The translations under genes and the position numbers were made by a program. From positions 1 to 27,094 of the IMG/VR virus record IMGVR_UViG_3300044511_000447: a stretch of 27,094 nucleotides of DNA; one strand, written 5' to 3'. This DNA is from a virus. Below the pieces are notes generated by a model, which did no database searches, was not told the origin of the DNA, and was given only the letters and a program-made list of their open reading frames with translations. This document shows, in pieces, positions 1-20,404 of this stretch. The first letter of the stretch is position 1. Every line of letters starts with the position of its first letter.

Positions 1-31
1 ACGGAAAATCAATATCAACGTCAGCGCTCAT
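1..31 (-). CDS. DnaE-like (C-family) DNA polymerase, second part, 5' end only (partial)
   Basis: Only the first ten codons lie in the window and read M-S-A-D-V-D-I-D-F-P before the left edge. The start ATG overlaps the stop of the zinc-finger gene as ATGA. In bacterial DnaE the catalytic motif PD(F/I)D(V/I)DF, which carries two of the three catalytic aspartates, follows the glycine-serine motif by roughly 40 residues. The S-A-D-V-D-I-D-F string matches that motif, and the gene at 3904-4395 stops just before the point where it would occur. The gene also occupies the position of the polymerase gene (43) in the T4 order 44-62-regA-43. I infer that it encodes the catalytic remainder of a split C-family polymerase. 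Ten residues are thin evidence, so the next ~1.5-2 kb to the left decides it. Confidence 0.55.
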   Translation of the reverse strand, partial: MSADVDIDFP

Positions 32-771
32 AAACCAAATTCTTCCTTTATGAAATGCTTCAATTCATCAACAGTGGATTTCATTTCTTCAAACTTAGTA
101 AACCAAAAACCTATATTAATTACTTTTTTTAATTCTTCCTTATCTTCAGTGTCCATTTTACTAACAAATTGATTCACTGAGCTACTAATAAAAATAATCC
201 ATGGAGAAAGCTGACGGCGACGAAATAACTCAATGAATCTTTTACTTCCGATTTCATTAAGAACATTAGTTAAATCAACTTCATATTTTTCAGCATAGTT
301 AATTAAAACACCGATACTTTCAGCTAACGCTTCCTGTGGATTATCAACTGATTTATCGACCTGTTGAATATAAGCCCCATAAGCTTCATTTCTCATCCAC
401 ATTGCAGGTGGATAGTCAATTTCAACCATAGTTCGCACGTAAACCGTTGGTTTGCTTATGCCGAGCTTTTTTATAAATTCGGCAAACTTTATAAAAACTG
501 AAAAAAATCTAGATTCTGCAAACGTGTCAATTGGAGGAACTGCTCGCTTCTGAATAGTCATCCAGTCAGCATAGATTGCAAATGCTCCTTGCCCAATTGG
601 AGTTTTTAAAATTTCAGCACGCTCCATTTCACGACAACTATGCTTCATGAAATTGGTTTCATTTGCAAGAGTTCTTTTACAATGAGGGCAAGTCCAACTG
701 CTTGGACTTGCATTTATCTCAACTTGTGCTTTTCTCTTCTTTGCAATTCGACGAATTGTTTCTTCATCCAT
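28..771 (-). CDS. Zinc-finger protein of unknown function in the regA slot
   Basis: This 247-residue protein is not recognised. It has a basic N-terminus followed by a CxxC...HxC zinc-binding pattern (C28, C31, H44, C46). The rest is predicted mostly helical, with no signal peptide or membrane segment. Its ATG overlaps the end of gp62 by 8 nt, and its stop overlaps the next ATG. It is therefore translationally coupled inside the clamp loader-polymerase operon. In T4 this position holds regA, a ~120-residue translational repressor, but nothing in this protein looks like RegA. A role at the replisome, as a DNA/RNA-binding accessory factor or a link between loader and polymerase, is inference from position and zinc finger only. 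Confidence 0.85.
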   Translation of the reverse strand: MDEETIRRIAKKRKAQVEINASPSSWTCPHCKRTLANETNFMKHSCREMERAEILKTPIGQGAFAIYADWMTIQKRAVPPIDTFAESRFFSVFIKFAEFIKKLGISKPTVYVRTMVEIDYPPAMWMRNEAYGAYIQQVDKSVDNPQEALAESIGVLINYAEKYEVDLTNVLNEIGSKRFIELFRRRQLSPWIIFISSSVNQFVSKMDTEDKEELKKVINIGFWFTKFEEMKSTVDELKHFIKEEFGL

Positions 772-1237
772 CTTTTAATTCTTTTTTCAATTTTGTCAAT
801 TGATCTTTTTCCCAAGCTAAATCTTCGGCCAACGTTATTATATCATCATCAGTATAACCTGGAAAAATTATTTTTGCCTCTCGAAGCGAACAATTTCGAG
901 CTGTAGCAATTACTTCAAGCGCAAGCTTTTTTTGTTTCTTTTTATTAAGTGGCTTCCAAAAATAGCGATTTGTTTTTTTATTTCCTGTTGTTGACATCAG
1001 TTTTAGCAACAAATTAGGGTATTTACCCAGCGCAAACACATATGGATTTACGTTATCATTTAGCTTCCTAAGTGCTTCTGTATCATGTGTTCCTGCCAAC
1101 CAGCGTTGAACAACAATTGGAGAAAATCCTTTTTGTTGTTCAACCGTTAAACTTTCCCAAATATTGAAATTGCGTTTGTTAATTTCACTAAGCAACCAGA
1201 AAATATCAAGCTTGAAGCTTCGAACTTTTTCTCCCAT
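764..1237 (-). CDS. 62: Sliding-clamp loader small subunit (gp62-like)
   Basis: In T4, gp62 forms the clamp loader with four gp44 subunits and loads the gp45 clamp. This 157-residue protein is somewhat shorter than T4 gp62 (187). It follows gp44 with a one-base TAATG overlap, as in T4. The sequence resembles gp62 of marine T4-like phages in pattern: a D-I-F-x-x-L-x-x-I-N-x-K start, a central N-P-Y-V-F-A segment, a basic N-K-K-T-N-R-Y-F-W-K stretch and a C-terminal helical domain. There is no catalytic motif, as expected for this subunit. The call rests mainly on synteny and this weak pattern similarity. Confidence 0.75.
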   Translation of the reverse strand: MGEKVRSFKLDIFWLLSEINKRNFNIWESLTVEQQKGFSPIVVQRWLAGTHDTEALRKLNDNVNPYVFALGKYPNLLLKLMSTTGNKKTNRYFWKPLNKKKQKKLALEVIATARNCSLREAKIIFPGYTDDDIITLAEDLAWEKDQLTKLKKELKDG

Positions 1238-2166
1238 TAAAGAGCACCTAGCTTTATAAGTAATGCGGCAAAGTTAATTTCAGGGTCAACCACAATGCCA
1301 TGCTTGTAAAGGTGCTCAGCTATTTCAATGATTGCCTTTTCTTGTTTATTGTCATCAACTTTAAACTTTGGAATGAGTTCAAGACTTGTATACAAAAATC
1401 TAAACAAATCTTCGTAATCTTCAGTGTTAACTGAATCTACTAAAAGTTTTCTGGCTTCCTTAAATTTATTTTGTTGTAAAAGCTCAAGAACATCATAACG
1501 ATAATTTTTTGATTCACTTTCAAGAGGAGCTTTAAGAACTCCTGATCTTGATGATTCTTGACAAATTGTAATTATTTGACGAATGTCTGGATATGATGAG
1601 TAGATTATTTTTTCAAGCACATCAACGTTTATGTCAACCCCTTCTTTATCAAGAATGTCAACAACTAATTCAATTACAGAATCAGTGTGCGGAGATTTAA
1701 ATCTAATGTGGTTGAACCTTGACTTAATCTCAATAGTTAATCGATTTTCATGATTACATGTTGCGATAAATCTTGTGGTTGACGTATTTTCAACAATTAT
1801 GTGACGCAACATAGCTTGCGCGTTAGGAGAAAGATAATCAGCTTCCTCGAGCTGAATTACTTTAAAATCTCCAAACGGCATTACATTTGCAAATCGACTG
1901 ATCTTTTCACGAATCGTATCAACGCCAGTTTCATCTGATGAGTTAATACGAAGCACATCAAGTTCATGAACACCTAGCTCAGAAATTAAAATATTTGATA
2001 AAGTAGATTTACCAGTTCCTTTAATTCCACTAATCAATAAGTGGGGAAGATCTTTATTTTTAACTATTGATTCAAAATAAGCTCGTTGCGAATTATCTTG
2101 AAACACAATATCGGCTAAACAAGTTGGGGCGTATCTATCAACCCAAAGTGGACTTTTATTCTTCAT
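1237..2166 (-). CDS. 44: Sliding-clamp loader ATPase subunit (gp44)
   Basis: This AAA+ ATPase of the RFC/gp44 family opens and loads the sliding clamp. Walker A is G-I-K-G-T-G-K-S at residues 47-54. The Walker B region reads V-I-Q-L-E-E-A-D, so the usual first aspartate of DE is a glutamate. The arginine-finger SRC motif appears as S-R-F, preceded by the C-N-H-E-N sensor-1 asparagine region. The N-terminal W-V-D-R-Y-A-P box is typical of RFC small subunits. I chose the ATG at 2166 because a GGAAG ribosome site precedes it. A longer reading from a TTG at 2202 would begin inside the promoter -10. It is the first gene of a promoter-led operon with gp62, the zinc-finger gene and the polymerase part. 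Confidence 0.93.
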   Translation of the reverse strand: MKNKSPLWVDRYAPTCLADIVFQDNSQRAYFESIVKNKDLPHLLISGIKGTGKSTLSNILISELGVHELDVLRINSSDETGVDTIREKISRFANVMPFGDFKVIQLEEADYLSPNAQAMLRHIIVENTSTTRFIATCNHENRLTIEIKSRFNHIRFKSPHTDSVIELVVDILDKEGVDINVDVLEKIIYSSYPDIRQIITICQESSRSGVLKAPLESESKNYRYDVLELLQQNKFKEARKLLVDSVNTEDYEDLFRFLYTSLELIPKFKVDDNKQEKAIIEIAEHLYKHGIVVDPEINFAALLIKLGAL

Positions 2167-2193
2167 TTGTCTTCCATAATGATTCAAAGAATC

Positions 2194-2223
2194 ATTATAC
2201 AACTTATATTTTTAAAAGTACAA
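2194..2223 (-). promoter_or_regulatory. Sigma70-type promoter of the gp44 operon
   Basis: On the minus strand TTGTAC (2223-2218) and a perfect TATAAT (2199-2194) are separated by 18 nt. Transcription would start near 2187, about 20 nt before the chosen gp44 ATG. The upstream block ATTGTACTTTT is shared with the promoters at 5725-5753 and 22981-23009. Confidence 0.7.
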
Positions 2224-2224
2224 T

Positions 2225-3214
2225 TTATCTATAAACCTGATTAATTGGCGCGTTTTTTGAAACGTTACCAAAGTCAATTTGAATAGAGTCGGCATCAATA
2301 TCTTCAAGTTTTGATCTCATGGGTGTACTTTCAATCTCAGTTAAAACAGTTGGCGTTTTATCTTTTACTTCTAGCTCAGGAATATATGGTAGCTCTTCTT
2401 TTACAATTGGTTCAATAATGTCGTGTTTTGGCTCTAATTCTAAAGGACCACTTGGAACATTAACAAATCCAGGAGATGCTAAATCAGGTGTAAAATCAAC
2501 AATTACTTCTTCTGGAGTAATTATGACTTCTTTTTTCGGAACTTTCTTTAATAGCAAATAGTTTCCAGATAAAAGAAGCCAAATTGCTAATGGATCAAAA
2601 ACAAAAATAATTAATGAAATCGCATAACTAACAGTTTCTTCTGGCGTTTTTCCAAAGATTGCTGCAAGGTACATTATTGGCCCAACATGGGCATTTCTAT
2701 CTATCTGAGTCATTTTGATCTCAGGTAGTTCCTTGTCAATTTCGGCAACTCGATTAGTTACTGCTTCTTGTTCTGCTTTGAAATTTGCCATTAACTTGGT
2801 TCTTCCTCTAACAACGTCTGTTGGCAAGTTCGCGATTTGAGTATCAATTTCTCTTTTACGCGTTTCAAGCTTTGATTTTTCAGCTTCGAGCAACTCAATT
2901 TTTGTTTCAATCCCTTTTATAGGAACTGATGATTTCTGAAATTCAGCAGCTAGAAATCCAGCAGCTCCAGCAGAAGTAATCAAAATTAATGTCGCAGCCG
3001 CAGGCACCCCGTAAAGTTTCTGTAAAAAGTTAATATTATTCCATTCCTTGTACAAGAAAGAGACACCAATAACTTTCCCCAGGTCAAGAGAGGCAGCGAC
3101 TGCAAGAACTAAAAAATTATTTGAGAAAAATGAACTCCAACCCAAAATTGAAATCCAACTTCCTAAAACTTCAATTGTAAGTGCTGATAAAAAAACTAAT
3201 AAAGTAAAAAGCAT
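2225..3214 (-). CDS. Membrane protein with central coiled coil and acidic tail, unknown function
   Basis: Residues ~1-25, 30-55 and 70-92 are hydrophobic and probably membrane-spanning. Residues ~98-170 form a charged, heptad-like helical region rich in E, K and R. Another strongly hydrophobic segment follows at ~195-220 (I-S-L-I-I-F-V-F-D-P-L-A-I-W-L-L-L). The last ~100 residues are acidic, rich in P and E, and probably disordered. The ATG follows the stop of the co-chaperonin gene directly and has no evident ribosome site, which suggests translational coupling. It lies in a late-promoter unit with the two genes upstream. I cannot name the family. A virion, lysis or membrane-remodelling role is possible but unsupported. 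Confidence 0.85.
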   Translation of the reverse strand: MLFTLLVFLSALTIEVLGSWISILGWSSFFSNNFLVLAVAASLDLGKVIGVSFLYKEWNNINFLQKLYGVPAAATLILITSAGAAGFLAAEFQKSSVPIKGIETKIELLEAEKSKLETRKREIDTQIANLPTDVVRGRTKLMANFKAEQEAVTNRVAEIDKELPEIKMTQIDRNAHVGPIMYLAAIFGKTPEETVSYAISLIIFVFDPLAIWLLLSGNYLLLKKVPKKEVIITPEEVIVDFTPDLASPGFVNVPSGPLELEPKHDIIEPIVKEELPYIPELEVKDKTPTVLTEIESTPMRSKLEDIDADSIQIDFGNVSKNAPINQVYR

Positions 3215-3523
3215 TTAATACGAAAAGTGTGGCTCGTCGTCTACAAGCATGACTTGAGTATCATCAGTTTTCCAAATTTGAACATTTTCATGCTTGAAGC
3301 CAATCGTCCATTTTAATGGTTCGATCAAAATGTATAATCCAACTTTTATTTGCTCATCAACATCAGGGCCAATTGCTAAAACCTTGGCCCATTTCGGTAC
3401 ATGAGCTTCATTAAGATTTTGATTTGTTAACAAAATTCCTGATTTTGTTTTTGGAATAAAATTTCCGCCAGCATGATCATCAACGAACGCAAATAAAATT
3501 GAATTGCCTAATGGTCTTAACAT
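3215..3523 (-). CDS. GroES-like co-chaperonin (gp31-type)
   Basis: The product is a 102-residue GroES-fold protein, close to GroES (97) and T4 gp31 (111). The N-terminal M-L-R-P-L-G-N-S-I-L matches the GroES strand I-R-P-L-x-D-R-V. The mobile loop carries K-T-K-S-G-I-L-L, whose hydrophobic G-I-L-L (29-32) corresponds to the GroEL-docking I-V-L. Next comes W-A-K-V-L-A-I-G-P, matching the GroES G-x-V-L-A-V-G-x-G core. In T4, gp31 replaces host GroES on GroEL so that the major capsid protein gp23 can fold. The same role is inferred here from family and from the late promoter at 3879-3886. An AAGG ribosome site precedes the ATG. Confidence 0.8.
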   Translation of the reverse strand: MLRPLGNSILFAFVDDHAGGNFIPKTKSGILLTNQNLNEAHVPKWAKVLAIGPDVDEQIKVGLYILIEPLKWTIGFKHENVQIWKTDDTQVMLVDDEPHFSY

Positions 3524-3548
3524 ATGCCTTATTTCCTTATGAATATTT

Positions 3549-3830
3549 TTATTTAGTTTTTGAGTTCTTTGATACCGAGGCAGATTCTGCAGCGGCTTCA
3601 GCGCTGACTCTTAGCGCAAGTGGTAACTCATTAATTTGTTTTTCATCGCTGATTGCAGTTTCAACAGGTTCTGCAACAGGCGTTGCTTTTGAAAAGCCAC
3701 CTTTTTCATCAATAAATTTTCTTCGTTGATTTACAGAAACTGGTATAGGGGCTGCCGCAAGAGCCTGCTGAATTTCTAAAATATCAAAATCAACAATTTC
3801 GCCGCGCGCAGATCGTGTTATTCTTCCCAT
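3549..3830 (-). CDS. Small conserved phage protein, unknown function
   Basis: The product is 93 residues. Its N-terminus M-G-R-I-T-R-S-A-R-G-E-I-V-D-F-D has the look of a small protein I recall from other T4-like phages, without an assigned role. A short basic stretch with R-R-K-F-I-D-E-K follows at ~36-43. The C-terminal half is rich in A, S and E and probably disordered. A GGAG ribosome site precedes the ATG, and a late promoter lies ~50 nt upstream, so it is probably made late. It heads a unit with the co-chaperonin and the membrane protein. A structural or assembly role is plausible from timing only. Confidence 0.8.
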   Translation of the reverse strand: MGRITRSARGEIVDFDILEIQQALAAAPIPVSVNQRRKFIDEKGGFSKATPVAEPVETAISDEKQINELPLALRVSAEAAAESASVSKNSKTK

Positions 3831-3857
3831 AATTTCTCCGACTATTTGGTATTAGTT

Positions 3858-3881
3858 ATAAAGTAGGCGAACCTACTTTAT
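3858..3881 (-). terminator. UUCG-loop hairpin between the DnaE-like part and the late unit
   Basis: A 10-bp perfect stem (ATAAAGTAGG/CCTACTTTAT) closes a TTCG loop, about 23 nt past the stop at 3904. It overlaps the last bases of the late promoter. It can form in transcripts reading through from upstream. It cannot form in late transcripts, which would start inside the 5' arm. It may be a terminator or a processing/stability hairpin; no long U-tract follows. Confidence 0.5.
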
Positions 3882-3886
3882 TTATA
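3879..3886 (-). promoter_or_regulatory. T4-type late promoter (TATAAATA)
   Basis: There is an exact match to the T4 late -10 box on the minus strand. The predicted start is near 3873, about 43 nt before the ATG at 3830. It would drive the 93-residue gene, the co-chaperonin and the membrane protein. Confidence 0.75.
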
Positions 3887-3903
3887 GGTGTCAGGCAGAA
3901 ATA

Positions 3904-4395
3904 TCAATCATGGAAAAATTCGGAGTATGAAATATTGTACTTTAATGGGTCAACTAAATGTAGACCAATTAAAAATAGAAGATATGAAGCGCAGCTACTT
4001 CCTCTACCTACTCCCCAAACCTGAGCCTTTTCTTTTAAAGTATCAACGATGTAAATAATAACTCTAAACAAGTCTACAAGATTTCTCCTGTAGACCTGTG
4101 TTAACTCGTTATCAATCCTAGTGTCAACTCGATCATCACCGGTTTTGAATTGATTGAAATATTCACGAACGTCAAGTGTTTTATACTTAGTTGGAATATT
4201 CCATTCTAAATTCCACGTATATTTATCGTCATCATTGCTTTTTAAAAGCAATGTTTCAGCAAATTGATTAAACTCAATAATTTCTGGTGTTAACTGTGTT
4301 ACAAGAATTTGCTGAACTGGAATATTTCGAAGAAGTAATTCTTCAACATTTTCAGGTTCAGCAATTATTTTTCCATCGGGTCTATAGGACACCAT
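3904..4395 (-). CDS. DnaE-like (C-family) DNA polymerase, first part (glycine-serine motif, no PHP domain)
   Basis: The last ~75 of 163 residues align with the start of the DnaE palm. The series is R-I-D-N-E-L, a helical stretch ending in T-L-K-E-K, the glycine-serine motif G-V-G-R-G-S-S (128-134), then L-F-L-I-G-L-H-L-V-D-P-L-K-Y. It ends in Y-S-E-F-F-H-D, matching the DnaE F-E-R-F-L. The stop falls just before the site where DnaE has its PDxDxDF catalytic motif. That motif appears as the start of the gene at 31-1. The N-terminal ~85 residues are unrecognised and too short for the ~270-residue PHP domain. The ATG overlaps the dCMP deaminase gene by 31 nt. No intein-like sequence follows the break. 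On its own this piece lacks the catalytic aspartates, so it would have to act with the other part. Confidence 0.72.
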   Translation of the reverse strand: MVSYRPDGKIIAEPENVEELLLRNIPVQQILVTQLTPEIIEFNQFAETLLLKSNDDDKYTWNLEWNIPTKYKTLDVREYFNQFKTGDDRVDTRIDNELTQVYRRNLVDLFRVIIYIVDTLKEKAQVWGVGRGSSCASYLLFLIGLHLVDPLKYNISYSEFFHD

Positions 4396-4907
4396 TTATA
4401 TTCAATCCCATTGTCAATTAGACGCTGAATAACTTCGTCATTGTTCGTAACTCGATTATAATATCGCGCAAAAACAATCCGCTTTACCTTAAGCGGAATT
4501 AAATTTTTTAGACATTGCGAACAAGGTTGAAGCGAACTATACACAGTTGCTCCTTCAAGACTAATTCCGCGGCGGGCTGCCCAAATTAATGCATTTAGCT
4601 CAGCGTGAATTTCATGAACGTCTGACCAAGCTCGATGAGCAGCTGGGTCAAACCCTTCTCTTGTAAATATTTCATCACAATTAATTTCACCAGCAACGGT
4701 ACCGTTGATGCCTGTAGCAACAATTCGATTGTCAACTACAAAAAAACATGCTACCTGTTGTGACACACAATGTGAAAGTTTAGTAAAATTACAAACTTGC
4801 TCAATGAAAATTTTATCAAGAGTTTCTTGCTTACGCTGCTGCAGCGCTGCCTGCTTCTTGGTTATACCGAGTTGATCTCGTAGAAAGTGAAATAAGCTTT
4901 TTATCAT
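4365..4907 (-). CDS. cd: dCMP deaminase
   Basis: This zinc-dependent enzyme deaminates dCMP to dUMP and feeds thymidylate synthesis. The zinc signature is complete: H-A-E (H101, proton-shuttle E103) and P-C-S-Q-C (C129, C132), in the usual spacing with G-A-T-V-Y-S-S-L between. The segment N-G-T-V-A-G-E-I-N-C-D corresponds to the substrate-loop G-Y-N-G-S-P-A-G of T4 Cd. At 180 residues it is close to T4 Cd (193). The ATG at 4907 lies 77 nt inside the preceding gene and has only a weak ribosome site. No internal ATG precedes the conserved domain, so I keep it. It acts in nucleotide supply with NrdA/NrdB. Confidence 0.9.
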   Translation of the reverse strand: MIKSLFHFLRDQLGITKKQAALQQRKQETLDKIFIEQVCNFTKLSHCVSQQVACFFVVDNRIVATGINGTVAGEINCDEIFTREGFDPAAHRAWSDVHEIHAELNALIWAARRGISLEGATVYSSLQPCSQCLKNLIPLKVKRIVFARYYNRVTNNDEVIQRLIDNGIEYKWCPIDPMEK

Positions 4908-5697
4908 CTGATACCCATTTTACAGTTCCTGTAACTTTTATTTGAATTTTATTTTCTTTTGCAGGATTAAAAATTTCTAAAACATCATCATAATTTTTTG
5001 CTTTAAAAGTTACGAAGCGACCATCAGTAAGCTTTAAATTAACTTGGAAAAAACATCCAAAATCATTTGCTTTTTCTTTTACGCTTGAAACTACGCCTTG
5101 AAATTCGTAATTTTGTTTAATGTGTGTTTCAGGATATTCTGTCGGATTTTCAGCTTCGTTAATAACTGCTTCAGCGTTTTTTATGACTGCTGCTACTTGC
5201 TTTTCAGAAAGCGTTCCATACATGTGATATTTTAAACCAATATCACGTACAAATACACTAGCAGTTTCAGAATCAATAGCTTGTAAAAAAAGTTCACGAT
5301 GATAGCAACTCAAATTTGCAAGAGTAGCTTTTTGTTTTTGCTTCAAAGCCTCAAGAACCGCATTGCGCTTCTCTTGAACTTTCGCAGTCTTACGATCATT
5401 TGCTACTTGTAAAGATTTAATTTTTTTCAAAATCTTTTGTTCCTCATTTACCACAAAAACCTCTACTTCATTCAATGAAGGAACAAAACCTATATGACCG
5501 TAACCGTTACACTTGAAGCAAACTGAACTATGATACCAGTTACTGTAAGAGTAATGACCACTGCCACCGCATCGGGGACATACTTTAACTTTTAATAAGG
5601 AAGTCAATGCTTTAAAAAACAAAACAGCGTCAACATTGTGAATTGACGCTGTTTTGTTTGCGAGAGCTTGTAGTTGTTCAACAATTTTAGTAGCCAT
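4831..5697 (-). CDS. DnaJ-type zinc protein with coiled coil and OB-like C-terminus
   Basis: The 288-residue protein has one DnaJ-type zinc site built from two CxxCxGxG repeats (C40/C43 and C60/C63). There is no J domain or HPD motif, so it is not a DnaJ co-chaperone. A charged helical stretch follows at ~80-125. Residues ~195-275 (from E-F-Q-G-V-V-S-S-V to K-L-I-S-L-S-T-R-S) alternate beta strands in the manner of an OB fold, which I infer by eye. It ends in G-S-A-A-A-A. Similar zinc-ribbon proteins are common in large phages without a known role. A strong sigma70-like promoter lies just upstream, and the dCMP deaminase gene overlaps its 3' end by 77 nt. A nucleic-acid-binding role is inference. 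Confidence 0.85.
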   Translation of the reverse strand: MATKIVEQLQALANKTASIHNVDAVLFFKALTSLLKVKVCPRCGGSGHYSYSNWYHSSVCFKCNGYGHIGFVPSLNEVEVFVVNEEQKILKKIKSLQVANDRKTAKVQEKRNAVLEALKQKQKATLANLSCYHRELFLQAIDSETASVFVRDIGLKYHMYGTLSEKQVAAVIKNAEAVINEAENPTEYPETHIKQNYEFQGVVSSVKEKANDFGCFFQVNLKLTDGRFVTFKAKNYDDVLEIFNPAKENKIQIKVTGTVKWVSDDKKLISLSTRSTRYNQEAGSAAAA

Positions 5698-5724
5698 CGT
5701 TTTTGCTCTTTAGTTGATAATTAT

Positions 5725-5753
5725 ATTATAGCACAACATCTAAAAAAGTACAA
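5725..5753 (-). promoter_or_regulatory. Strong sigma70-like extended -10 promoter
   Basis: On the minus strand TTGTAC (5753-5748), a 17-nt spacer and TATAAT (5730-5725) are preceded by TGC, giving an extended -10. The start would be near 5718, 21 nt before the ATG at 5697. The sequence is almost identical to that at 22981-23009. Confidence 0.8.
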
Positions 5754-5759
5754 TGAATT

Positions 5760-8700
5760 TTACTGCTGCCAGAATTTTATATTTCCACCTATACCAGATA
5801 TTTTCATACTAAAGCTATACCAGTCATATGGTTGAACAACGAAAGTAATTGACATTAGCCCATCAGTAGGTGGAGCTCCAGTCCAATTTAATGGAACAGT
5901 TATTGAACCTGTTGTATCACCTGCATTTAAACCTGTGCTCATGTCAAGATTGACATTGTCAGTGGTAACAGCAGTTCCGTTTTGAGTTGCAATAGCAATT
6001 GTCTGTTGTAAAAATGATGTTCCATCATAAGGAGCATCTAAAATAAAGTCAAATTTAAGAGCTGATGGCTGAATGCTTTGTAATGAAGAGATATAGAAAT
6101 TGTGCTGTGAAATAAGTTCAGCTCGTAAAGCGACTCCGCCTCCAGCCCCAGTAGGAACCGTCACAGTATCATTTCCTGTTAATGCCCAACCACCAGTAGT
6201 AGTTGTTAACCACCAGTATGCAATTAATGGAATAAATTTCATATCTGCTCCTGCAACAAATGCTAACCATGTTGCGCCGCCGTCAGTTGTAATAATAGTA
6301 AGAACATCAATACCGCCAGGAGTCATACTAAAGGTAGGTAATGTTCCATTTGCCCATTTAAAAGTAGAAGGAAATGACGGTATATTGTTACCTGAAGCGT
6401 TTTGAATAAGAACAAGTGTAACCGATGATGTGAATGTCCCCGGAACAAAGTTTGAAATTGTAAACGCGGTGTTATCTGTCATTGTAACAACATGTGTGTT
6501 ACCTTGTGAAAGGTCAATGTCATACGTTCCTTGAATACTAACATTAACAGTAGGTTCACTGTAGCTTTTTAAAATCGCCTTTTCGACGATATTATTATTA
6601 ACATTGATATCGCCAGTCATTGTTCCACCGTTAAGGTTTAAGAACTTTTGGCCGGCCTCCCATTTTAATGTTGTTCCATTGAAAACTAACGCTTCATCGT
6701 TATTTAAAACAGTTAGCGTTCCAATATTAACATCAGTTAAATCAGCAATAGCGTGACTGTGCGAAACATTTGCTTTACCAGCAAGCAAGTTATTGATCTG
6801 CGTAATGTCATAAGAGTCACTGATGTTATAACCAGCAAGTGTGGTAGGAGCATTTAAAACTCCTGACCAATTTACATTGGAAGCGGTACCTGCGTTTCCA
6901 GTAATATCAGTGATGCTAACCGCGCCAACTTGGCCATTTACTGAAAGCACTAAATCAGTTGGAGTTAAAAGCTCCTGCCAATCTGATAACAATGAAGGAT
7001 CAGTTCCTTGCAAAATAAAACTTTTGTTTAGATCACTTCTAATTGCAACGTCACCTGTCTGTGCTGTAAGGGCAAGCATCTGAGTTTGATCTGTAACTAC
7101 AAAAGTATCAACTATTGCGATTGCTGGAAGTTGAATTGATGGAACTTTTCCAGTTGCATCAAGAGATGCAACTCCGTTTACAATACCTTTTTCAGTTGTC
7201 GCAATCGCGTCACTGATATTATAACCAGCAAGAGTGGTAGGAGTGCCAATAATATTTGACCAATTAACAGTAGTGGTAAGTGGGCTATTTACCCAAACAG
7301 TTCCATTAAATTTCAAAAACTCATCTACACTTGGTGTCGAAATTACAGTATCAGTTAACGAACTAAGAGCGTGTGTGTGTGCTGTCGCAGCTTTACCACT
7401 TAGTAGAGTATCAACCTGTGTTGCGGTATAAGCATCAATAATACCGTACCCGACAAGTGACGTTGGAGCGCCAGTAATATTAGACCAGGCCCAAGTTGTT
7501 GGAGCGCCAGTAATATTAGACCAGGCCCAAGTTGTTGGAAATGGAGTGTTAGCCCAAGTTGTTCCATTAAAGGCGAGATACTGTGTAGCTGATGGTGACG
7601 CTATAGTGACATCACTTGATGATGCAAGTGAATGAATATGTCCAACATTTGACTTGTTGCTAAGCAGTGAATCAACTTGTGACATTGTGTACGCGTCAGT
7701 AATTGCGAAACCACTAATTGTCGACGGCTTCGCAGTTATACTTGTCCACGGTAATGAATTAACTTGAACTGGCAACTGTTGATTTACCCACTGAGAACCA
7801 TCCCATTTCAAAACATCACCAGGAATTCTACCAGGAGTAGAATTTATTACATCAGAAAGTTGCGAAAGAGCGTGATTGTGCGCATTAAATGTTGTTAGTG
7901 AAACCGCGTCATTTATTCCGTAACCGGCAAGATTGCTTGGCGTGTTTACGACATTAGCCCAGTCCCAATTTGTTGGAAGCGCTGGAAGATTTGCATTTAC
8001 CCAGTTTCCACTTAAATCATAAGTTAAAATTTGTCCATTAACTGGAGTGGTTATTTGAACACCACCTAAATTTGAGTTAATTGCTACAGCGTGCGGTGAA
8101 TTTTCCCACTTATTAGTAATTCCGTTGAATTTTAACAAGTCACCATTAGCTGGTAAAGTTAAAAACTGAACATCTGTTAGATTTAAAAGCCCGTGAGTAT
8201 GATTTGCTAGTGCAGCGTCATTTATTCCATAACCAGCAAGTGTGGTAGGAGTGTTAACTATCTCTAACCACGGGTGATTATGCACAAGCTCTGATGGTGA
8301 TATTCCATAACCAGCAAGTGTGGTAGGAGTATTTATGATGTTAGCCCAGTCCCACACGCTTGGAAAATCAACAATATTAGCAACATGATGTGTATGATTT
8401 ATATCGGCAACATTTGTAATTCCATATGCCTGCCAAGTTGTTGGCGTATTTGAAATATGTATCCAGTCCCATGATGTTGGAAAATCAACAATATCAGCGA
8501 TATGATGTGTGTGACCAATTAATGAAACATCTGTTAACCAGCCGGCGGCAACAGTTGGAATATTAATTAAATCAAACCAGTTATGAACATGTGAAATATT
8601 TGATTTATTGTTTAGTTCAGCAATTAATCCATTGATATCTGTCATGTCATGAAGATGGCCGATATCTGTCTTGTTATCAAGAACAGCTTGTAAACCGGTT

Positions 8701-9947
8701 ATATCTAAAATATCATGAACATGATTTATATCAGCTTTTAATAAATCTGCGCTTATTCTATTTTGAATTTCAGCTGTTAATGAACTTAAAATAGATTGAA
8801 CTTGATTATCGCGAGTTTGAATTTCAAGTGCTAAGTTAGCTGCTGTACTTTCTACTGTTTGAAAAACAGTCTCACTCATGTACCCGCCTTGGCTGGCGCT
8901 TGCTTCACCAATTGCTACTAGCACTGCACCTGAAGAAGTGCTTGCTGCGAGTGGAGCAACTGCACTTACTGAAGTGATGCCTGTTGATGAAGCTGTTACA
9001 GGTGCGGATGCTTCTCTATCTATTTGAAAAAGAATTGTTGTAGGATTTAAAATTGAACCAATATGCCAAACGTCACGTTGTGGTCTTACTGTAGAAAACT
9101 GCCCATTTGCTGTAAGGTACAGTGTTTTCCCTGCATCAGAAATATCAAAATTCCAATTTGGGTTATGAACAATACGACCACTAAGAATAATGGTGGTAGG
9201 TTCATTAACATAAACAGGTTCAATACAGAAACCAATAGGCGTAGCACCTAAAACAGGATCATTTTGCGCAAGCTTTATTTGATCAGGACCGCCAAACGCT
9301 ACAACAGAGAATGCTGGAATTGGTTCAATTGCTGTTACCAAAAAGATCGTACTATCAATCTTAATGTTACTTTGCTGTTGACTACCTATAAGTTTGAGAT
9401 CAACGTCAGAAGTTAAAAGCTCACCATTAGGGCGTCTAACTGGTTTACCATCACCATCTGCAATGATAAAGCCGCCCTCAAAATTACCATTAATTGAAAC
9501 TTGACTTCCTACCGGATAAGACGTGATGTTATAACCAGCTTTTGAACCAACTAAAACTTTAAGTTTTGTTATCCAACGATTACCATCCCACTCTTTAACT
9601 ACGTTAGCGTCAAGATCAAAAACTGTTTGACCAACACCGGCTGTAGCTGGCACACCATGTTGAACTAAAAATGGTAAAGTTGAAAATGTAAACGATGGCT
9701 GACCAGTTATTTGACTGATTTCAACATACAAATCCGCATTTGCTGGTAATGGACCCCAGGCCTTTTGAATTGTTTTATTAAATTCAATAATATAATTTGA
9801 TGTACCATGAGCTATCGTAATATAGAGTGGCCCATTAGATGTGCTTAAATCTACACGAGTAGGATCAGAGCTCAAGCGCAGCGAACTAAAGTTGCCTAAA
9901 TTGTCTTGTGGTGCATTAAGAACACCGTGACGAAACTGTAAAATCAT
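5760..9947 (-). CDS. Long tail fibre protein with HxH and GYGI repeats
   Basis: This 1395-residue fibre has three regions. Residues 1 to ~330 form a non-repetitive, beta-rich attachment-type domain. Residues ~400-1065 are repetitive, with eleven H-x-H sites (such as N-H-T-H, S-H-V-H, G-H-I-H) alternating with variants of P-T-T-L-A-G-Y-G-I. After the fibre motif L-N-G-G-T-M-T-G-D-I at ~1095 comes a ~290-residue beta-rich tip ending W-Q-Q. Paired histidines in T4 gp37 coordinate iron along the trimer axis, and a similar metal-stapled trimer is inferred. The C-terminal tip probably binds the receptor. A GAGG ribosome site precedes the ATG. No chaperone-type C-terminus (intramolecular protease) was recognised. 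Confidence 0.9.
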   Translation of the reverse strand: MILQFRHGVLNAPQDNLGNFSSLRLSSDPTRVDLSTSNGPLYITIAHGTSNYIIEFNKTIQKAWGPLPANADLYVEISQITGQPSFTFSTLPFLVQHGVPATAGVGQTVFDLDANVVKEWDGNRWITKLKVLVGSKAGYNITSYPVGSQVSINGNFEGGFIIADGDGKPVRRPNGELLTSDVDLKLIGSQQQSNIKIDSTIFLVTAIEPIPAFSVVAFGGPDQIKLAQNDPVLGATPIGFCIEPVYVNEPTTIILSGRIVHNPNWNFDISDAGKTLYLTANGQFSTVRPQRDVWHIGSILNPTTILFQIDREASAPVTASSTGITSVSAVAPLAASTSSGAVLVAIGEASASQGGYMSETVFQTVESTAANLALEIQTRDNQVQSILSSLTAEIQNRISADLLKADINHVHDILDITGLQAVLDNKTDIGHLHDMTDINGLIAELNNKSNISHVHNWFDLINIPTVAAGWLTDVSLIGHTHHIADIVDFPTSWDWIHISNTPTTWQAYGITNVADINHTHHVANIVDFPSVWDWANIINTPTTLAGYGISPSELVHNHPWLEIVNTPTTLAGYGINDAALANHTHGLLNLTDVQFLTLPANGDLLKFNGITNKWENSPHAVAINSNLGGVQITTPVNGQILTYDLSGNWVNANLPALPTNWDWANVVNTPSNLAGYGINDAVSLTTFNAHNHALSQLSDVINSTPGRIPGDVLKWDGSQWVNQQLPVQVNSLPWTSITAKPSTISGFAITDAYTMSQVDSLLSNKSNVGHIHSLASSSDVTIASPSATQYLAFNGTTWANTPFPTTWAWSNITGAPTTWAWSNITGAPTSLVGYGIIDAYTATQVDTLLSGKAATAHTHALSSLTDTVISTPSVDEFLKFNGTVWVNSPLTTTVNWSNIIGTPTTLAGYNISDAIATTEKGIVNGVASLDATGKVPSIQLPAIAIVDTFVVTDQTQMLALTAQTGDVAIRSDLNKSFILQGTDPSLLSDWQELLTPTDLVLSVNGQVGAVSITDITGNAGTASNVNWSGVLNAPTTLAGYNISDSYDITQINNLLAGKANVSHSHAIADLTDVNIGTLTVLNNDEALVFNGTTLKWEAGQKFLNLNGGTMTGDINVNNNIVEKAILKSYSEPTVNVSIQGTYDIDLSQGNTHVVTMTDNTAFTISNFVPGTFTSSVTLVLIQNASGNNIPSFPSTFKWANGTLPTFSMTPGGIDVLTIITTDGGATWLAFVAGADMKFIPLIAYWWLTTTTGGWALTGNDTVTVPTGAGGGVALRAELISQHNFYISSLQSIQPSALKFDFILDAPYDGTSFLQQTIAIATQNGTAVTTDNVNLDMSTGLNAGDTTGSITVPLNWTGAPPTDGLMSITFVVQPYDWYSFSMKISGIGGNIKFWQQ
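7462..7533 (-). repeat. Exact 36-bp tandem duplication in the tail fibre gene
   Basis: Two identical 36-bp units (7462-7497 and 7498-7533) encode a 12-residue block T-T-W-A-W-S-N-I-T-G-A-P twice. Six more bases of a third unit follow. The identity at DNA level, including wobble positions, points to a recent in-frame duplication within the fibre repeat region. Confidence 0.95.
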
Positions 9948-9975
9948 TTCACGTCCTCAGTTAAGATGTTTTTCT

Positions 9976-9983
9976 TATTTATT
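9976..9983 (-). promoter_or_regulatory. Possible late promoter variant (AATAAATA) of the tail fibre gene
   Basis: One mismatch from TATAAATA, placed ~30 nt before the tail fibre ATG at a sensible distance. The same variant occurs at 10493-10500 ahead of the holin-like gene. In AT-rich DNA such near matches are common, so this is weak. Confidence 0.3.
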
Positions 9984-10011
9984 ATTTGAAATGATTTTAT
10001 TAGACTAAAGC

Positions 10012-10440
10012 TCAAAAAACTCCAAAAATCTTCTTTGGTGAAGGTGGTTCATCATTTTCTTTTTCCTTATTTTCAATTTTTACCCCATATTTAGCAGCGA
10101 TAAATTTACTAAAGCCTTCACTTGAGGCAACATAAGTAAGATATGTAGCGAACATATCCCATGTAAGTTTTTCAAAAATAGTCATTCGAATAATAACCCA
10201 GGTTCCAACGATACCTCCAATAAATTGGAGAAGTTTTGTAAGAGATACTCGATTGGTTCCTTTAGCTGTTATTAAATCCGACCATTCAAGACTATCGGCG
10301 CGCTGAATGCCATAAATTAATAAAGTGAAGAAAAGAAGAATGAATAATGACGACCAAAAATGGCTTGATAAAATCTGATCCAAAAGACTGTTTATAAAGT
10401 CGTGCCACATATACTTATAACTCTCAAAAAATTTGAACAT
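10012..10440 (-). CDS. Holin-like small membrane protein
   Basis: The 142-residue protein has a short amphipathic N-terminus, a strongly hydrophobic segment at ~28-46 (F-W-S-S-L-F-I-L-L-F-F-T-L-L-I-Y-G-I), and a second at ~70-86 (L-L-Q-F-I-G-G-I-V-G-T-W-V-I-I). A weaker helix follows at ~95-115. The tail is charged and ends in K-E-K-E-N-D-E-P-P-S-P-K-K. Size, topology and charged tail fit a holin, and the endolysin at 15727-16308 has no signal peptide and so needs one. The family is not firmly recognised. Two starts are possible, 10440 and M11 at 10410. The first sits in a hairpin loop without a clear ribosome site; the second has GAGAG upstream. Confidence 0.5.
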   Translation of the reverse strand: MFKFFESYKYMWHDFINSLLDQILSSHFWSSLFILLFFTLLIYGIQRADSLEWSDLITAKGTNRVSLTKLLQFIGGIVGTWVIIRMTIFEKLTWDMFATYLTYVASSEGFSKFIAAKYGVKIENKEKENDEPPSPKKIFGVF

Positions 10441-10456
10441 ATGGTGTTATAAGTAT
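10411..10456 (-). promoter_or_regulatory. Hairpin enclosing the holin-like start codon
   Basis: A perfect 11-bp inverted repeat, ATACTTATAAC (10411-10421) and GTTATAAGTAT (10446-10456), brackets a 24-nt loop containing the ATG at 10440-10438. The second in-frame ATG (10410) comes directly after the stem. Translation from the two starts could differ according to folding. Confidence 0.5.
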
Positions 10457-10457
10457 G

Positions 10458-10482
10458 AGAGACGGTGCTCAGCACCGTCTCT
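10458..10482 (-). terminator. 11-bp hairpin between glutaredoxin and holin-like genes
   Basis: AGAGACGGTGC / GCACCGTCTCT with a three-base loop, immediately downstream of the glutaredoxin stop (10492). The stem is GC-rich for this genome, but no U-tract follows on the minus strand. It may be a terminator or an mRNA 3'-end protection hairpin. Confidence 0.6.
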
Positions 10483-10491
10483 ATTATGTAA

Positions 10492-10743
10492 CTATTTATT
10501 TAGAAATTGCTCTAATTGCGTATAACCGCCAATGTGGTTATCGTTTATGAAAATTTGTGGAACAGAACGAGCATCTGGAGCAGCCTTTAAAAGTTCATTA
10601 CGCGTATAATAAATAACTCCTGGATTCTTTAACTGTCCATAGTCAAGCAGGTATTGAATATATTCAATACCTTTTGTTTCTAAAAGGTATTTCGCTTTAT
10701 CGCAATATGGACAATTTTCTTTTGAATAAATTATAGCGTGCAT
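10492..10743 (-). CDS. Glutaredoxin
   Basis: The 83-residue glutaredoxin has the dithiol active site C-P-Y-C (C12-C15) after Y-S-K-E-N. It also carries the cis-proline motif S-V-P-Q-I-F-I and the glutathione-binding G-G-Y-T (73-76). An unusual D-Y-G-Q-L-K-N-P-G-V-I-Y-Y insertion lies between helix 2 and the V-P strand, roughly residues 39-51. In T4-like phages glutaredoxin/thioredoxin (NrdC) regenerates the C-terminal cysteine pair of NrdA. The neighbouring nrdA and nrdB genes support that role. The ATG overlaps the preceding stop by one base. Confidence 0.92.
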   Translation of the reverse strand: MHAIIYSKENCPYCDKAKYLLETKGIEYIQYLLDYGQLKNPGVIYYTRNELLKAAPDARSVPQIFINDNHIGGYTQLEQFLNK

Positions 10744-11030
10744 TAAATTCTCCTAAAAACTGGTAAATAATTATTCGGTGGGTTTTTTAATTCAACAAAT
10801 TCATGTCTGACTAAAAATGATGGTATATTCTCTTCAAATATCGTTACTAATTTTTCATACGTTCCTGGTCGAATAACTAGCGCGTGAACTATTCTAGTCT
10901 CATTAGGAATAATCGCATCAACATTTGTAAAGCCATCACCATTTTCAATAATTGTTGCCTTTATATTCTGAACATCTTTTTCAGAAATCGGTTTTCTATT
11001 TTTCAATTGAATGTTGAAATCGTATTTCAT
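10743..11030 (-). CDS. Small protein of unknown function
   Basis: The 95-residue protein is not recognised. It looks like a small mixed alpha/beta domain without cysteines, membrane segments or a signal. K-K/R-rich ends flank a strand-rich middle (R-I-V-H-A-L-V-I-R-P-G-T-Y). A GGAG ribosome site sits at the right distance, and its stop overlaps the glutaredoxin start, so it is a coupled member of the nrd-glutaredoxin unit. Confidence 0.75.
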   Translation of the reverse strand: MKYDFNIQLKNRKPISEKDVQNIKATIIENGDGFTNVDAIIPNETRIVHALVIRPGTYEKLVTIFEENIPSFLVRHEFVELKNPPNNYLPVFRRI

Positions 11031-11042
11031 AAGTATTCTCCA

Positions 11043-11423
11043 TTATAAAATTATTTGCTTATAATCAATTGGCGTTATTATTCCATTTTTATATTCTACT
11101 GCTGAATAAATTTTTATATTATTAGTACATTCTGCAAATAATATTTTTGGTAGAAAATTTTTCGTAATATCAAATAATATATTAGCTTTTGAAACTACAG
11201 AATGAAAAATTGCGTATAGACGTTTATCTTCTACGTGAATTAAATTATATCCAATAACTTTATAAGCATTATTTTCTAAAATATAATTTTCAACATTTTT
11301 ATGACATTCATTTTCTGGAAATTTACCAGTTTTTAAATAATGAAAATATGATTTTTGTAAATTCAAAAATTCTACTATTTCATTAAAGCCAATATCATCT
11401 TTTTTTGCTGGACGACACTTCAT
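11043..11423 (-). CDS. Protein of unknown function downstream of a homing endonuclease
   Basis: From the ATG at 11423, with AAGG 10 nt upstream, this encodes 126 residues beginning M-K-C-R-P-A-K-K-D-D-I-G-F-N-E-I. A longer reading to 11474 would lie within the endonuclease gene and lacks a ribosome site. The sequence is lysine-rich, has several strands (Y-K-V-I-G-Y-N-L-I-H-V), and no recognised motif. It is more AT-rich than the nrd genes. It overlaps the 3' end of the GIY-YIG gene by 29 nt, and the two may have arrived together. Confidence 0.65.
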   Translation of the reverse strand: MKCRPAKKDDIGFNEIVEFLNLQKSYFHYLKTGKFPENECHKNVENYILENNAYKVIGYNLIHVEDKRLYAIFHSVVSKANILFDITKNFLPKILFAECTNNIKIYSAVEYKNGIITPIDYKQIIL

Positions 11424-12168
11424 TAATATACCAACCTTTACAATTACCAAATCTAGCAGTCCTATTTTTATCAATCATCCCTTTCATAGTTCCATAAAAT
11501 AAATTATTATCATTACAAAAGTTTTTAAGGTTACCTGTTATAAAAAAATGTTCATTATTTGGAGTAATAATTTCATATGTTTTTGCCATAGGATTGTTAG
11601 CACCAGCACTTTTTATTGACATCTTTTCTTTCATTATTTTTATAAAGTTTTCTGATTTTTCTCTTCCATACATTGGATTATTCGTGCCAGACATTTTTTC
11701 ACTTATTTTTCTTTTAGTTTCTTCGCTATGTTTTTTAGGCCCATATCCACCACGAGCTAATTGCTTTTGACGACGAGCTTCTACTTTTTCTTCCCACCCA
11801 GGTCCAATAATTTCAGCTAACGTTTTTCCTTTAAAAGAAGGAGGTTTTGCTCCTAAACAAAAATTTGTAAGAATACCATTCTCATCTATACCTTTTCTTC
11901 CATATTGAATTATTAGTTGAGTCTCATAATCATAAGCGTCTTGCTCATTAATAAAATATGCGTAATAAACAATTGGAATTTCAAAACCTAATGATTGTAA
12001 TTTTAAAATTTTATTTAATTTTCGAGAATTTCTTTTTTTATCACGCTTTATCGATTGTGGTGCAAAATGTTGAAATGGTCTATCGTGTTTTCCTTTGCCA
12101 ATATAAAAGGGTAAATCGGTTCTTTTATCAATTAACCCATAAACAAAATATACAAATAAAGGTTCCAT
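11395..12168 (-). CDS. GIY-YIG homing endonuclease with NUMOD3 motifs
   Basis: The GIY-YIG nuclease domain is at residues ~5-90: the V-Y-F-V-Y-G-L strand, then F-Y-I-G-K-G-K-H-D-R-P-F-Q-H with its catalytic arginine, and a later E (Y-D-Y-E-T-Q-L-I) as metal ligand. NUMOD3-type DNA-binding motifs follow: H-S-E-E-T-K-R-K-I-S-E-K-M-S-G and N-N-P-M-Y-G-R. The C-terminus has a helix-turn-helix-like segment ending in G-W-Y-I-N-E-V. Such free-standing mobile endonucleases are common in T4-like phages, often beside nrd genes. I chose M10 (12168); 12195 and 12180 are also possible, and none has a ribosome site. A late promoter lies just upstream. Confidence 0.88.
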   Translation of the reverse strand: MEPLFVYFVYGLIDKRTDLPFYIGKGKHDRPFQHFAPQSIKRDKKRNSRKLNKILKLQSLGFEIPIVYYAYFINEQDAYDYETQLIIQYGRKGIDENGILTNFCLGAKPPSFKGKTLAEIIGPGWEEKVEARRQKQLARGGYGPKKHSEETKRKISEKMSGTNNPMYGREKSENFIKIMKEKMSIKSAGANNPMAKTYEIITPNNEHFFITGNLKNFCNDNNLFYGTMKGMIDKNRTARFGNCKGWYINEVSSSKKR

Positions 12169-12199
12169 AAAATAGAGCATGCAAAAATTAAACATACTG

Positions 12200-12207
12200 T
12201 ATTTATA
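12200..12207 (-). promoter_or_regulatory. T4-type late promoter (TATAAATA) of the GIY-YIG gene
   Basis: Exact late box on the minus strand between nrdB and the endonuclease. The predicted start, about 12194, coincides with the first possible ATG (12195). Either the mRNA is leaderless or the real start is downstream. Confidence 0.65.
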
Positions 12208-12224
12208 GTTTTCTAAATCAGTTT

Positions 12225-13325: not shown

Positions 13326-13334
13326 TTTTATTCC

Positions 13335-15653: not shown

Positions 15654-15693
15654 TATTATGTCCTTACTAAGTAAAGCCTAGGTTAACTACATT

Positions 15694-15721
15694 ATTATAT
15701 CAAAGATATCAGAAATTGTAA
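15694..15721 (-). promoter_or_regulatory. Extended -10 promoter of nrdA
   Basis: On the minus strand TTACAA (15721-15716), a 16-nt spacer and TATAAT (15699-15694) are preceded by TGA, giving TGATATAAT. The start near 15687 leaves a ~34-nt leader before the nrdA ATG. Confidence 0.6.
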
Positions 15722-15726
15722 TCAAC

Positions 15727-16308: not shown

Positions 16309-16315
16309 AAATGCT

Positions 16316-16350
16316 CCCTATCATGATGTATTATTTGAGGAATGATAGGG
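16316..16350 (-). promoter_or_regulatory. Hairpin masking the endolysin ribosome site
   Basis: CCCTATCAT (16350-16342) and ATGATAGGG (16324-16316) form a perfect 9-bp stem with a 17-nt loop. The last three G's of the 3' arm are the first bases of the GGGAG ribosome site. The late start predicted near 16346 lies within the 5' arm, so late mRNA would lack the CCCT half and leave the site open. Confidence 0.65.
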
Positions 16351-16351
16351 C

Positions 16352-16359
16352 TATTTATA
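16352..16359 (-). promoter_or_regulatory. T4-type late promoter (TATAAATA) of the endolysin gene
   Basis: Exact late box on the minus strand, ~44 nt before the endolysin ATG. It overlaps the regulatory hairpin so that the late transcript begins inside the stem. Confidence 0.8.
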
Positions 16360-16385
16360 CAGCTTCAAAGCAGCATTTTTAAAGC

Positions 16386-16922: not shown

Positions 16923-16923
16923 G

Positions 16924-19032: not shown

Positions 19033-19046
19033 AAAAAGCTCCACGT

Positions 19047-19070: not shown

Positions 19071-19080
19071 CAAGTTAGAA

Positions 19081-20351: not shown

Positions 20352-20361
20352 AACAAGCTCC

Positions 20362-20390: not shown

Positions 20391-20404
20391 TAATTCCTAA
20401 GTTT

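What the first reader, a model, noticed from the sequence alone, without database searches (positions are those of the whole stretch)
1..4395. A two-piece, PHP-less DnaE-like replicase in the T4 polymerase slot
The gene at 3904-4395 ends with the DnaE glycine-serine motif and the following V-D-P-L-K-Y...F-F segment. It stops just where DnaE has its PDxDxDF catalytic motif. About 3.9 kb on, after gp44, gp62 and a zinc-finger gene, a gene at the window edge starts M-S-A-D-V-D-I-D-F-P. Together they read like one C-family palm cut between two catalytic motifs. The second half sits where T4 has its family B polymerase gene. Neither part has room for the PHP domain at its N-terminus. A split inside the active site would need the two chains to assemble. 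No intein or intron sequence is seen at the break.
Basis: partly seen in the sequence, partly recalled or inferred. Interest (0 to 1): 0.88.

Follow-up and report, generated by a model that had tools for sequence, protein, structure and literature searches.

The report
Two-gene mini DNA polymerase III, phage
This phage carries the catalytic core of a bacterial-type DNA polymerase III cut into two small separate genes, a real arrangement already described in giant phages in 2021, and it sits beside a T4-like polymerase instead of replacing it.

Summary
Window 3904-4395(-) encodes 163 aa ending just before the DnaE PDxDxDF motif. The gene cut by the window edge (31..1, -) is complete, 192 aa, in a near-identical 197-kb virus contig. 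AlphaFold models (pLDDT 94.0, 95.6) map the two proteins onto consecutive stretches of E. coli Pol III alpha, about 279-394 and 398-782. PHP, thumb and C-terminal regions are missing. The aspartates matching the catalytic motifs are invariant in 67 of 67 C-halves.

The replacement reading fails: the 197-kb contig also encodes a family B polymerase, itself apparently broken at YGDTD by a split intein. PolB matches occur in 12 of 12 named phages searched that carry both halves.

In 33 genomes paired, the halves are separate genes 3.7 to 224 kb apart, in either order, once on opposite strands; the ends at the break leave no room for an intein.

The kind is in print: Iyer et al. 2021 (PMC7824862) describe a split minimal Pol III alpha beside PolB in "group 2.2" jumbo phages. 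This is a new member of that kind. Most likely (inferred) the chains assemble into an accessory polymerase; I found no experimental test in seven literature searches.

The parts
3904..4395 (-). N-half of the split minimal DNA polymerase III alpha (163 aa): palm part with Gly-Ser motif GVGRGSS; ends just before the PDxDxDF region
   Evidence: PF07733 E 6.6e-10; phrog_11127 E 5.2e-36; model pLDDT 94.0; VIA Z 12.2 to 5lew, Z 10.6 to 4jom (rmsd 2.6, 95 aligned, model 69-163 on E. coli 279-394)
1..31 (-). start of the C-half (first 10 codons in the window; 192 aa in L003:14365-14943): DxDxD, K-x-D, fingers RPGK and KKSHxxxY motifs
   Evidence: PF17657 E 3.9e-6; phrog_11778 E 6.6e-61; model pLDDT 95.6; VIA Z 10.0 to 2hnh (rmsd 5.0, 187 aligned, model 1-192 on E. 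coli 398-782)
28..771 (-). Zn-finger-like protein (247 aa, phrog_11058, unknown function) directly upstream of the C-half, 4-base overlap; candidate partner (inference)
   Evidence: phrog_11058 E 3.9e-45; C2H2 Pfam matches only at E 0.06-0.33, below cut-off; family within 4.5 kb of the C-half in 38 of 49 loci
764..1237 (-). possible gp62-like clamp-loader small subunit (weak)
   Evidence: phrog_11758 'unknown function' E 1.2e-17, phrog_225 clamp loader E 0.0075
1237..2202 (-). clamp-loader ATPase, T4 gp44-like
   Evidence: phrog_168 E 1.9e-68; family within 4.5 kb of the N-half in 43 of 49 loci
3215..3523 (-). GroES-like protein next to the N-half
   Evidence: Cpn10 PF00166 E 0.0013, below Pfam's cut-off; family within 4.5 kb of the N-half in 49 of 49 loci; annotated 'Co-chaperonin GroES' in Phosso and 'chaperonin' in MIJ3 at the same place

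Best explanation
A two-chain, minimal C-family (Pol III alpha / DnaE) polymerase core of the kind described in 'group 2.2' jumbo phages. Chain 1 (163 aa) brings the palm part with the Gly-Ser motif that in DnaE holds the triphosphate of the incoming nucleotide (established for DnaE; recalled). Chain 2 (192 aa) brings the metal-binding aspartates and the core of the fingers. The two meet non-covalently to make one active site (inferred). PHP, thumb and the C-terminal region are missing, and the phage has a separate family B polymerase, so it most likely works as an accessory polymerase within the same clamp-loader replisome: gap filling, repair or one strand (inferred; Iyer et al. also suggest one strand or repair). 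Shown: homology, fold, residue conservation, co-occurrence, PolB in the near-identical contig. Not shown: physical assembly, activity, role.
For: Fold: the 14 best VIA rows of the C-half are DnaE/PolC polymerases, Z 6.3-10.2, the next row 3.9; the 16 best of the N-half likewise, Z 7.6-12.2, the next 2.2; entries 9qpc, 9qrl and 9qrn are titled only 'DNA polymerase' and taken as PolC from their residue numbering. Foldseek agrees for the C-half: 7 rows at E <= 0.001, all Pol III alpha. The aligned ranges are consecutive in E. coli alpha. Residues: D4, D6, D8, K68, D70, H172 invariant in 67 of 67 C-halves; R93, E97, G128, G130, R131, G132, S133, F160 in 74 of 74 N-halves. Co-occurrence: each half once in 14 of 14 records; in 22 further contigs of 160-389 kb, N in 21 and C in 21. 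Control: phrog_11127 also rings in 8 of 14 cellular genomes (it sees whole DnaE), but the phage frames it hit are 163-228 aa; phrog_11778 rings in 0 of 14. Only one PF07733 place in each of 5 records. Distances of N and C correlate over 33 genomes, Mantel r 0.717, 0 of 5000 permutations as high. PolB: 13 of 14 records, 18 of 22 contigs. Print: PMC7824862.
Against: No complex was modelled and no activity is known. Without a thumb the grip on DNA is unclear. The distance correlation would also arise for any two vertically inherited genes. Loci were chosen for carrying one half, and the search patterns contain the GRGSS, H-x-x-G and IRP residues, so the invariance of those is partly by selection (that of D4, D6, D8, K68, D70, H172, R93, E97, F160 is not). 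Some records are near-duplicates (for example G010 and G024). Foldseek gave no row at E <= 0.001 for the N-half.
Confidence: 0.75

Rival explanations
1. The split polymerase is the main replicase and has displaced PolB.
For: The C-half lies after the clamp-loader genes, near where T4 has gp43 (T4 order recalled).
Against: PolB with exonuclease and polymerase domains in the near-identical contig; PolB matches in 12 of 12 named phages with both halves; no thumb or C-terminal region in the split protein. Four of 22 contigs lacked a PolB match; they are 160-200 kb and may be fragments.
Confidence: 0.05
2. A nucleotidyltransferase that is not a templated DNA polymerase, for example a primer-, end- or nucleotide-modifying enzyme built on the C-family palm.
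For: About 90 residues in the thumb region, about 85 in the fingers and everything after them are missing (gaps in the weak local alignments; ranges), so ordinary processive synthesis is unlikely.
Against: Fingers motifs R-P-x-K and K-S-H-x-x-x-Y are kept: R137 and H172 in 67 of 67, P138 and Y176 in 66 of 67.
Confidence: 0.15
3. A decaying remnant of a captured host dnaE.
For: Both halves are far shorter than a cellular alpha subunit.
Against: Motif residues invariant across 67 and 74 divergent sequences; both halves kept in 14 of 14 records and, each, in 21 of 22 further contigs; both fold with high confidence.
Confidence: 0.03
4. One gene broken in assembly, or by an intron or intein, so that a single chain is made.
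For: PolB in the near-identical contig is broken by an apparent split intein.
Against: Separate genes in 33 of 33 paired genomes, either order, opposite strands in G018; N-halves end 2-10 residues after conserved F160 (74 rows) and C-halves start 1-16 residues before the first Asp (67 rows) with the starts I chose; no frame with both halves among 160 loci.
Confidence: 0.02

Closest known systems
Split minimal DNA polymerase III alpha of group 2.2 jumbo phages (Iyer et al. 2021, Viruses 13:63, PMC7824862; author name recalled)
   Same: Two separate genes, an N-terminal NTP-binding part and a C-terminal metal- and template-binding part; none of the other Pol III domains; PolB alongside (passages read).
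   Different: Here the halves lie 3.9 kb apart around the clamp-loader genes, and PolB is broken by an apparent split intein; relatives found here include a 141-kb phage (Slicko01).
Xanthomonas phage XacN1 ORF245 + ORF228
   Same: Highest-scoring named relative of both halves: N 42.3%, C 49.5% identity.
   Different: Halves 14.9 kb apart; ORF228 annotated 'hypothetical protein'; an annotated Pol III epsilon gene (ORF223) five genes after the C-half.
Pectobacterium phage CBB, CBB_328
   Same: Reported in 2017 as a truncated Pol III alpha of 172 aa (PMC5259590, passages).
   Different: The second half is not mentioned in the two passages I saw.
Bacterial DnaE / PolC
   Same: Palm with Gly-Ser motif, acidic motifs, fingers motifs.
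   Different: Cellular enzymes are one long chain (E. coli 1160 aa) with PHP, thumb and C-terminal domains.

Membership tests
split minimal Pol III alpha (Iyer 2021) | two separate genes for the NTP-binding and the metal/template-binding parts | tested here: met
split minimal Pol III alpha (Iyer 2021) | no PHP domain | tested here: met
   PF02811: 0 of 5 records, all 14 controls positive; G001 is 197 kb and may be incomplete
split minimal Pol III alpha (Iyer 2021) | none of the other Pol III alpha domains elsewhere in the genome | not tested
   only PHP and PF07733 were searched; an epsilon-like gene, a different subunit, is annotated in XacN1 and reported in CBB and Atu_ph07
split minimal Pol III alpha (Iyer 2021) | accompanied by a family B polymerase | tested here: met
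   G001:26479-27351, exonuclease and polymerase domains
split minimal Pol III alpha (Iyer 2021) | genes distantly located | tested here: inconclusive
   3.9 kb apart here, 3.7 to 224 kb in relatives; the passages give no limit
C-family DNA polymerase (DnaE/PolC) | palm with Gly-Ser motif and catalytic Asp residues | tested here: met
   the E. coli numbers D401/D403/D555 are recalled
C-family DNA polymerase (DnaE/PolC) | N-terminal PHP domain | tested here: not met
   N-half has only 61-68 residues before the part aligned from E. coli position about 279; no PHP match
C-family DNA polymerase (DnaE/PolC) | thumb and C-terminal (clamp-binding, OB) regions | tested here: not met
   56 profile positions against 146 residues of 3e0d in the thumb region (weak local alignments) and an end near 823-840 of 1220
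C-family DNA polymerase (DnaE/PolC) | templated DNA synthesis | not testable with these tools
   needs protein
replacement of the T4-type replicase | no other replicative polymerase in the genome | tested here: not met
   PolB present; family A was not searched

The most novel reading that the evidence does not exclude
A DNA polymerase whose active site is completed by two separately made chains and whose lost DNA grip (thumb) is supplied by a third protein, the overlapping Zn-finger gene product of window 28-771, forming a second, clamp-loader-linked polymerase beside a trans-spliced PolB.
Probability: 0.15. Interest if true: 0.7.

Novelty: new member of a known kind. Interest (0 to 1): 0.35.

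Why it matters
If the two chains make an active enzyme, it would be a C-family catalytic core of 355 aa in two parts against 1160 aa for E. coli alpha, with a natural cut through a polymerase active site. Iyer et al. propose the minimal form as a model of the ancestral Pol III; that can be tested with two short proteins. This window adds a member with both genes close together in one replication cluster, which is convenient for co-expression.

Tried and rejected
Rejected: the split protein in place of PolB (PolB found); gene breakage or assembly error (33 of 33 paired genomes); intein at the break (no room); a fused single-chain version (none among 160 loci). Foldseek on the N-half gave no row at E <= 0.001 (best 0.023, M. 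tuberculosis DnaE); the VIA second look was clearer. Residues 1-61 of the N-half model matched nothing convincing and were barely tested (one row at Z 2.2). The PDB sequence search with the 13-row C-half profile was weak (best E 0.038); with 67 rows it reached 2.1e-4. Seven literature searches showed no experimental work on the split enzyme; I saw their listings and passages of five papers (PMC7824862, PMC6102473, PMC11348598, PMC6892783, PMC5259590) and opened none of the others, and the library holds open-licence papers only. A 2016 survey of viral replication proteins that I recalled did not appear as a held paper.

Rows left out and limits. Alignments A1 and A2 use 13 of 14 records (G002, a contig identical over the shared part, left out). 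Of 90 C and 87 N frame hits, one search kept complete plus-strand frames without duplicates (79 and 79) and 66 and 74 after thinning; A3 took all 66 plus L003, A4 took 73 of 74 (a truncated one dropped) plus the window. For some searches I gave 22 of the 26 loci on contigs of 160 kb or more, leaving out four on contigs of 348-378 kb (L114, L119, L120, L142). Misses: PolB in G010, G015, G016, G019 (160-200 kb), N-half in G012 (its C-half lies near the contig end), C-half in G021; all may be fragments, which was not tested. C-half starts in A3 were taken as the nearest upstream start codon, which favours short overhangs; stop-to-stop frames of 189-246 residues bound the error. One search counts include loci from the same contig, and its up/down labels mix overlaps with true positions, so only presence within 4.5 kb is used. 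Family A polymerase and epsilon were not searched; no complex of the two chains was modelled; dN/dS was not computed.
Full report
The observation. The minus strand of the window carries a replication cluster. The gene at 3904-4395 codes for 163 aa and stops right after ...VDPLKYNISYSEFFHD. Pfam sees DNA_pol3_alpha at E 6.6e-10 and PHROGs its family 11127 'DNA polymerase' at E 5.2e-36. The edge gene begins at window 31 with MSADVDIDFP. It is complete in two IMG/VR contigs found with the first half: 192 aa, L003:14365-14943, Pfam DNA_pol3_finger E 3.9e-6, phrog_11778 'DNA polymerase' E 6.6e-61. The 197-kb contig (G001) is 100% identical to the window over 1-14395 and 98.7% over 14378-27090.

What the pieces are. 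AlphaFold2 folds both with high confidence (C-half mean pLDDT 95.6; N-half 94.0). In the VIA second look the leading rows are DnaE/PolC polymerases: C-half Z 10.0 to E. coli alpha 2hnh (rmsd 5.0, 187 aligned, residues 398-782), 14 such rows before the first unrelated one at Z 3.9; N-half Z 10.6 to 4jom (rmsd 2.6, 95 aligned, residues 279-394), 16 such rows before one at Z 2.2. Entries 9qpc, 9qrl and 9qrn among them are titled only 'DNA polymerase' and are taken as PolC from their numbering. Foldseek agrees for the C-half (7 rows at E <= 0.001, all Pol III alpha) and ranks DnaE/PolC first for the N-half, but at no better than E 0.023. So the break falls between E. coli positions 394 and 398, just ahead of the aspartate motif. 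The C-half holds DxDxD (D4, D6, D8) and the K-x-D motif (D70); these are the counterparts of the catalytic aspartates (E. coli D401, D403, D555, recalled). The Gly-Ser motif is in the other chain. By the weak local alignments the C-half is about 90 residues short in the thumb region and about 85 in the fingers, and it ends soon after the KSH motif. No PHP match is found in 5 of 5 records, and the N-half has only 61-68 residues ahead of its aligned palm part.

Is it alive? In 67 thinned C-halves D4, D6, D8, H36, G39, K68, D70, R137 and H172 never vary; in 74 N-halves R93, E97, G128, G130, R131, G132, S133 and F160 never vary. H36, G39, R137 and the Gly-Ser letters occur in the patterns by which loci were found, so their invariance is partly selected; the aspartates, K68, H172, R93, E97 and F160 are not in the patterns. 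Such conservation speaks for a working catalytic site.

Two halves, always two. Twelve named phages (XacN1, Phosso, MIJ3, CM1, GAP32, Hallingskeid, XaC1, Atu_ph07, RaK2, Slicko01, Vibrio 2.275.O, SCTP-2) and two contigs of this virus each have exactly one of each half, 14 of 14. phrog_11127 also rings in 8 of 14 cellular controls, because it sees whole DnaE; but the frames it hit in the phages are 163-228 aa long, and phrog_11778 rings in 0 of 14 controls. Of 22 more contigs chosen for carrying one half (15 by C, 7 by N), 21 have the N-half and 21 the C-half. From those coordinates, 33 genomes (12 named, G001 and 20 contigs, some near-duplicates such as G010 and G024) can be paired: spacing runs from 3.7 kb (G015) through 3.9 kb (here) to 224 kb (Phosso); the N-half is upstream in 23, the C-half in 9 (MIJ3, GAP32, Hallingskeid, XaC1, RaK2, Vibrio 2.275.O, SCTP-2, G017, G023), and in G018 they lie on opposite strands; order in circular records is a convention. 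No frame among 160 loci contains both. N-halves end 2-10 residues after conserved F160, and C-halves begin 1-16 residues before the first aspartate with the starts I chose, which leaves no space for split-intein parts. The distance matrices of the two halves correlate over the 33 genomes (Mantel r 0.717, 0 of 5000 permutations as high), which shows shared descent, not contact. In the phage collection, 72 records match the C-half, 63 of them over at least 80% of it, and 145 match the N-half, the latter including ordinary phage DnaE genes.

The replicase question. PF00136 finds a family B polymerase in G001 at 26479-27351. Its frame (L062:1291-3696) has polymerase (E 2.3e-18) and exonuclease (E 3.8e-14) domains and an intein-splicing match behind YGDTD (PF14890 E 1.5e-8, 35.0 bits against a cut-off of 35.8; TIGR01445 E 0.00033, also below cut-off). 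A free-standing frame follows (PF18741 E 1.3e-5, below cut-off), then a second piece (PF00136 E 0.0027, below cut-off) that resumes with ...ILVHNSCYFHTF. A similar arrangement was reported for MIJ3 (PMC6892783, passages). So PolB is present and probably restored by trans-splicing (inferred). PolB matches occur in 12 of 12 named phages and in G001 (the miss is the 42-kb fragment) and in 18 of 22 further contigs. Each of 5 records has a single PF07733 place, so no second DnaE palm was seen there.

Neighbours. In 49 N-half loci with enough flank, a GroES-like gene lies within 4.5 kb in 49 and gp44 in 43; in 49 C-half loci the Zn-finger family (phrog_11058) lies within 4.5 kb in 38 and the gp62-like family in 37 (loci of one contig are not merged). 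In this virus the Zn-finger gene and the C-half overlap by four bases. In GAP32, Hallingskeid, XaC1, Atu_ph07, RaK2 and Slicko01 the C-half lies a few genes before a primase or primase/helicase gene, in the XacN1 stretch it does not. XacN1 has an annotated Pol III epsilon gene five genes after the C-half, and epsilon-like genes are reported in CBB and Atu_ph07; whether this virus has one was not searched.

What is known. Iyer et al. 2021 (PMC7824862; [quoted passage not shown] The CBB paper (PMC5259590, passages) had noted a truncated alpha of 172 aa, and the Atu_ph07 paper an alpha and an epsilon subunit (PMC6102473, passages). This window is therefore a new member of a known kind.

Verdict. 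Observation confirmed; two-chain C-family core supported; 'replicase in place of PolB' not supported; kind already in print; assembly and activity untested.

Noticed in passing
L062:1291-5626 (G001:25291-29626): PolB of the near-identical contig is broken at YGDTD(S) by an apparent split intein, with a free-standing frame (possible endonuclease) between the pieces; similar to the report for phage MIJ3.
   Followed up: partly
window 3215-3523: A GroES-like gene lies within 4.5 kb of the N-half in 49 of 49 loci; why a co-chaperonin travels with a polymerase piece is unexplained.
   Followed up: partly
W10 (Slicko01), W08 (Atu_ph07), G007, G009: PolB matches in two separate frames (for example 578 + 322 aa, 558 + 367 aa), perhaps further broken PolB genes; the Atu_ph07 paper lists two products, gp276 and gp277.
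   Followed up: no
window 3904-4395 and L003:14365-14943, PHROG matches: phrog_13169 (463 aa) matches the N-half at 330-411 and phrog_12219 (823 aa) matches the C-half at 375-398: possibly other split or unusual phage DnaE forms.
   Followed up: no
window 11395-12195 (-) and 24709-25653 (+): Two homing-endonuclease-like genes, the first beside the ribonucleotide reductase genes.
   Followed up: no
L003:15528-16562: A nucleotidyltransferase of the RlaP type (PF10127 E 1.3e-7) a few genes after the C-half.
   Followed up: no
L031:6865-7458 (XacN1): An annotated DNA polymerase III epsilon subunit five genes after the C-half, a possible proofreading partner.
   Followed up: no
window 26455-27093 (-): Terminase large subunit match at 677-878 of 890 in phrog_36964; the frame is open at the right edge of the window.
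   Followed up: no
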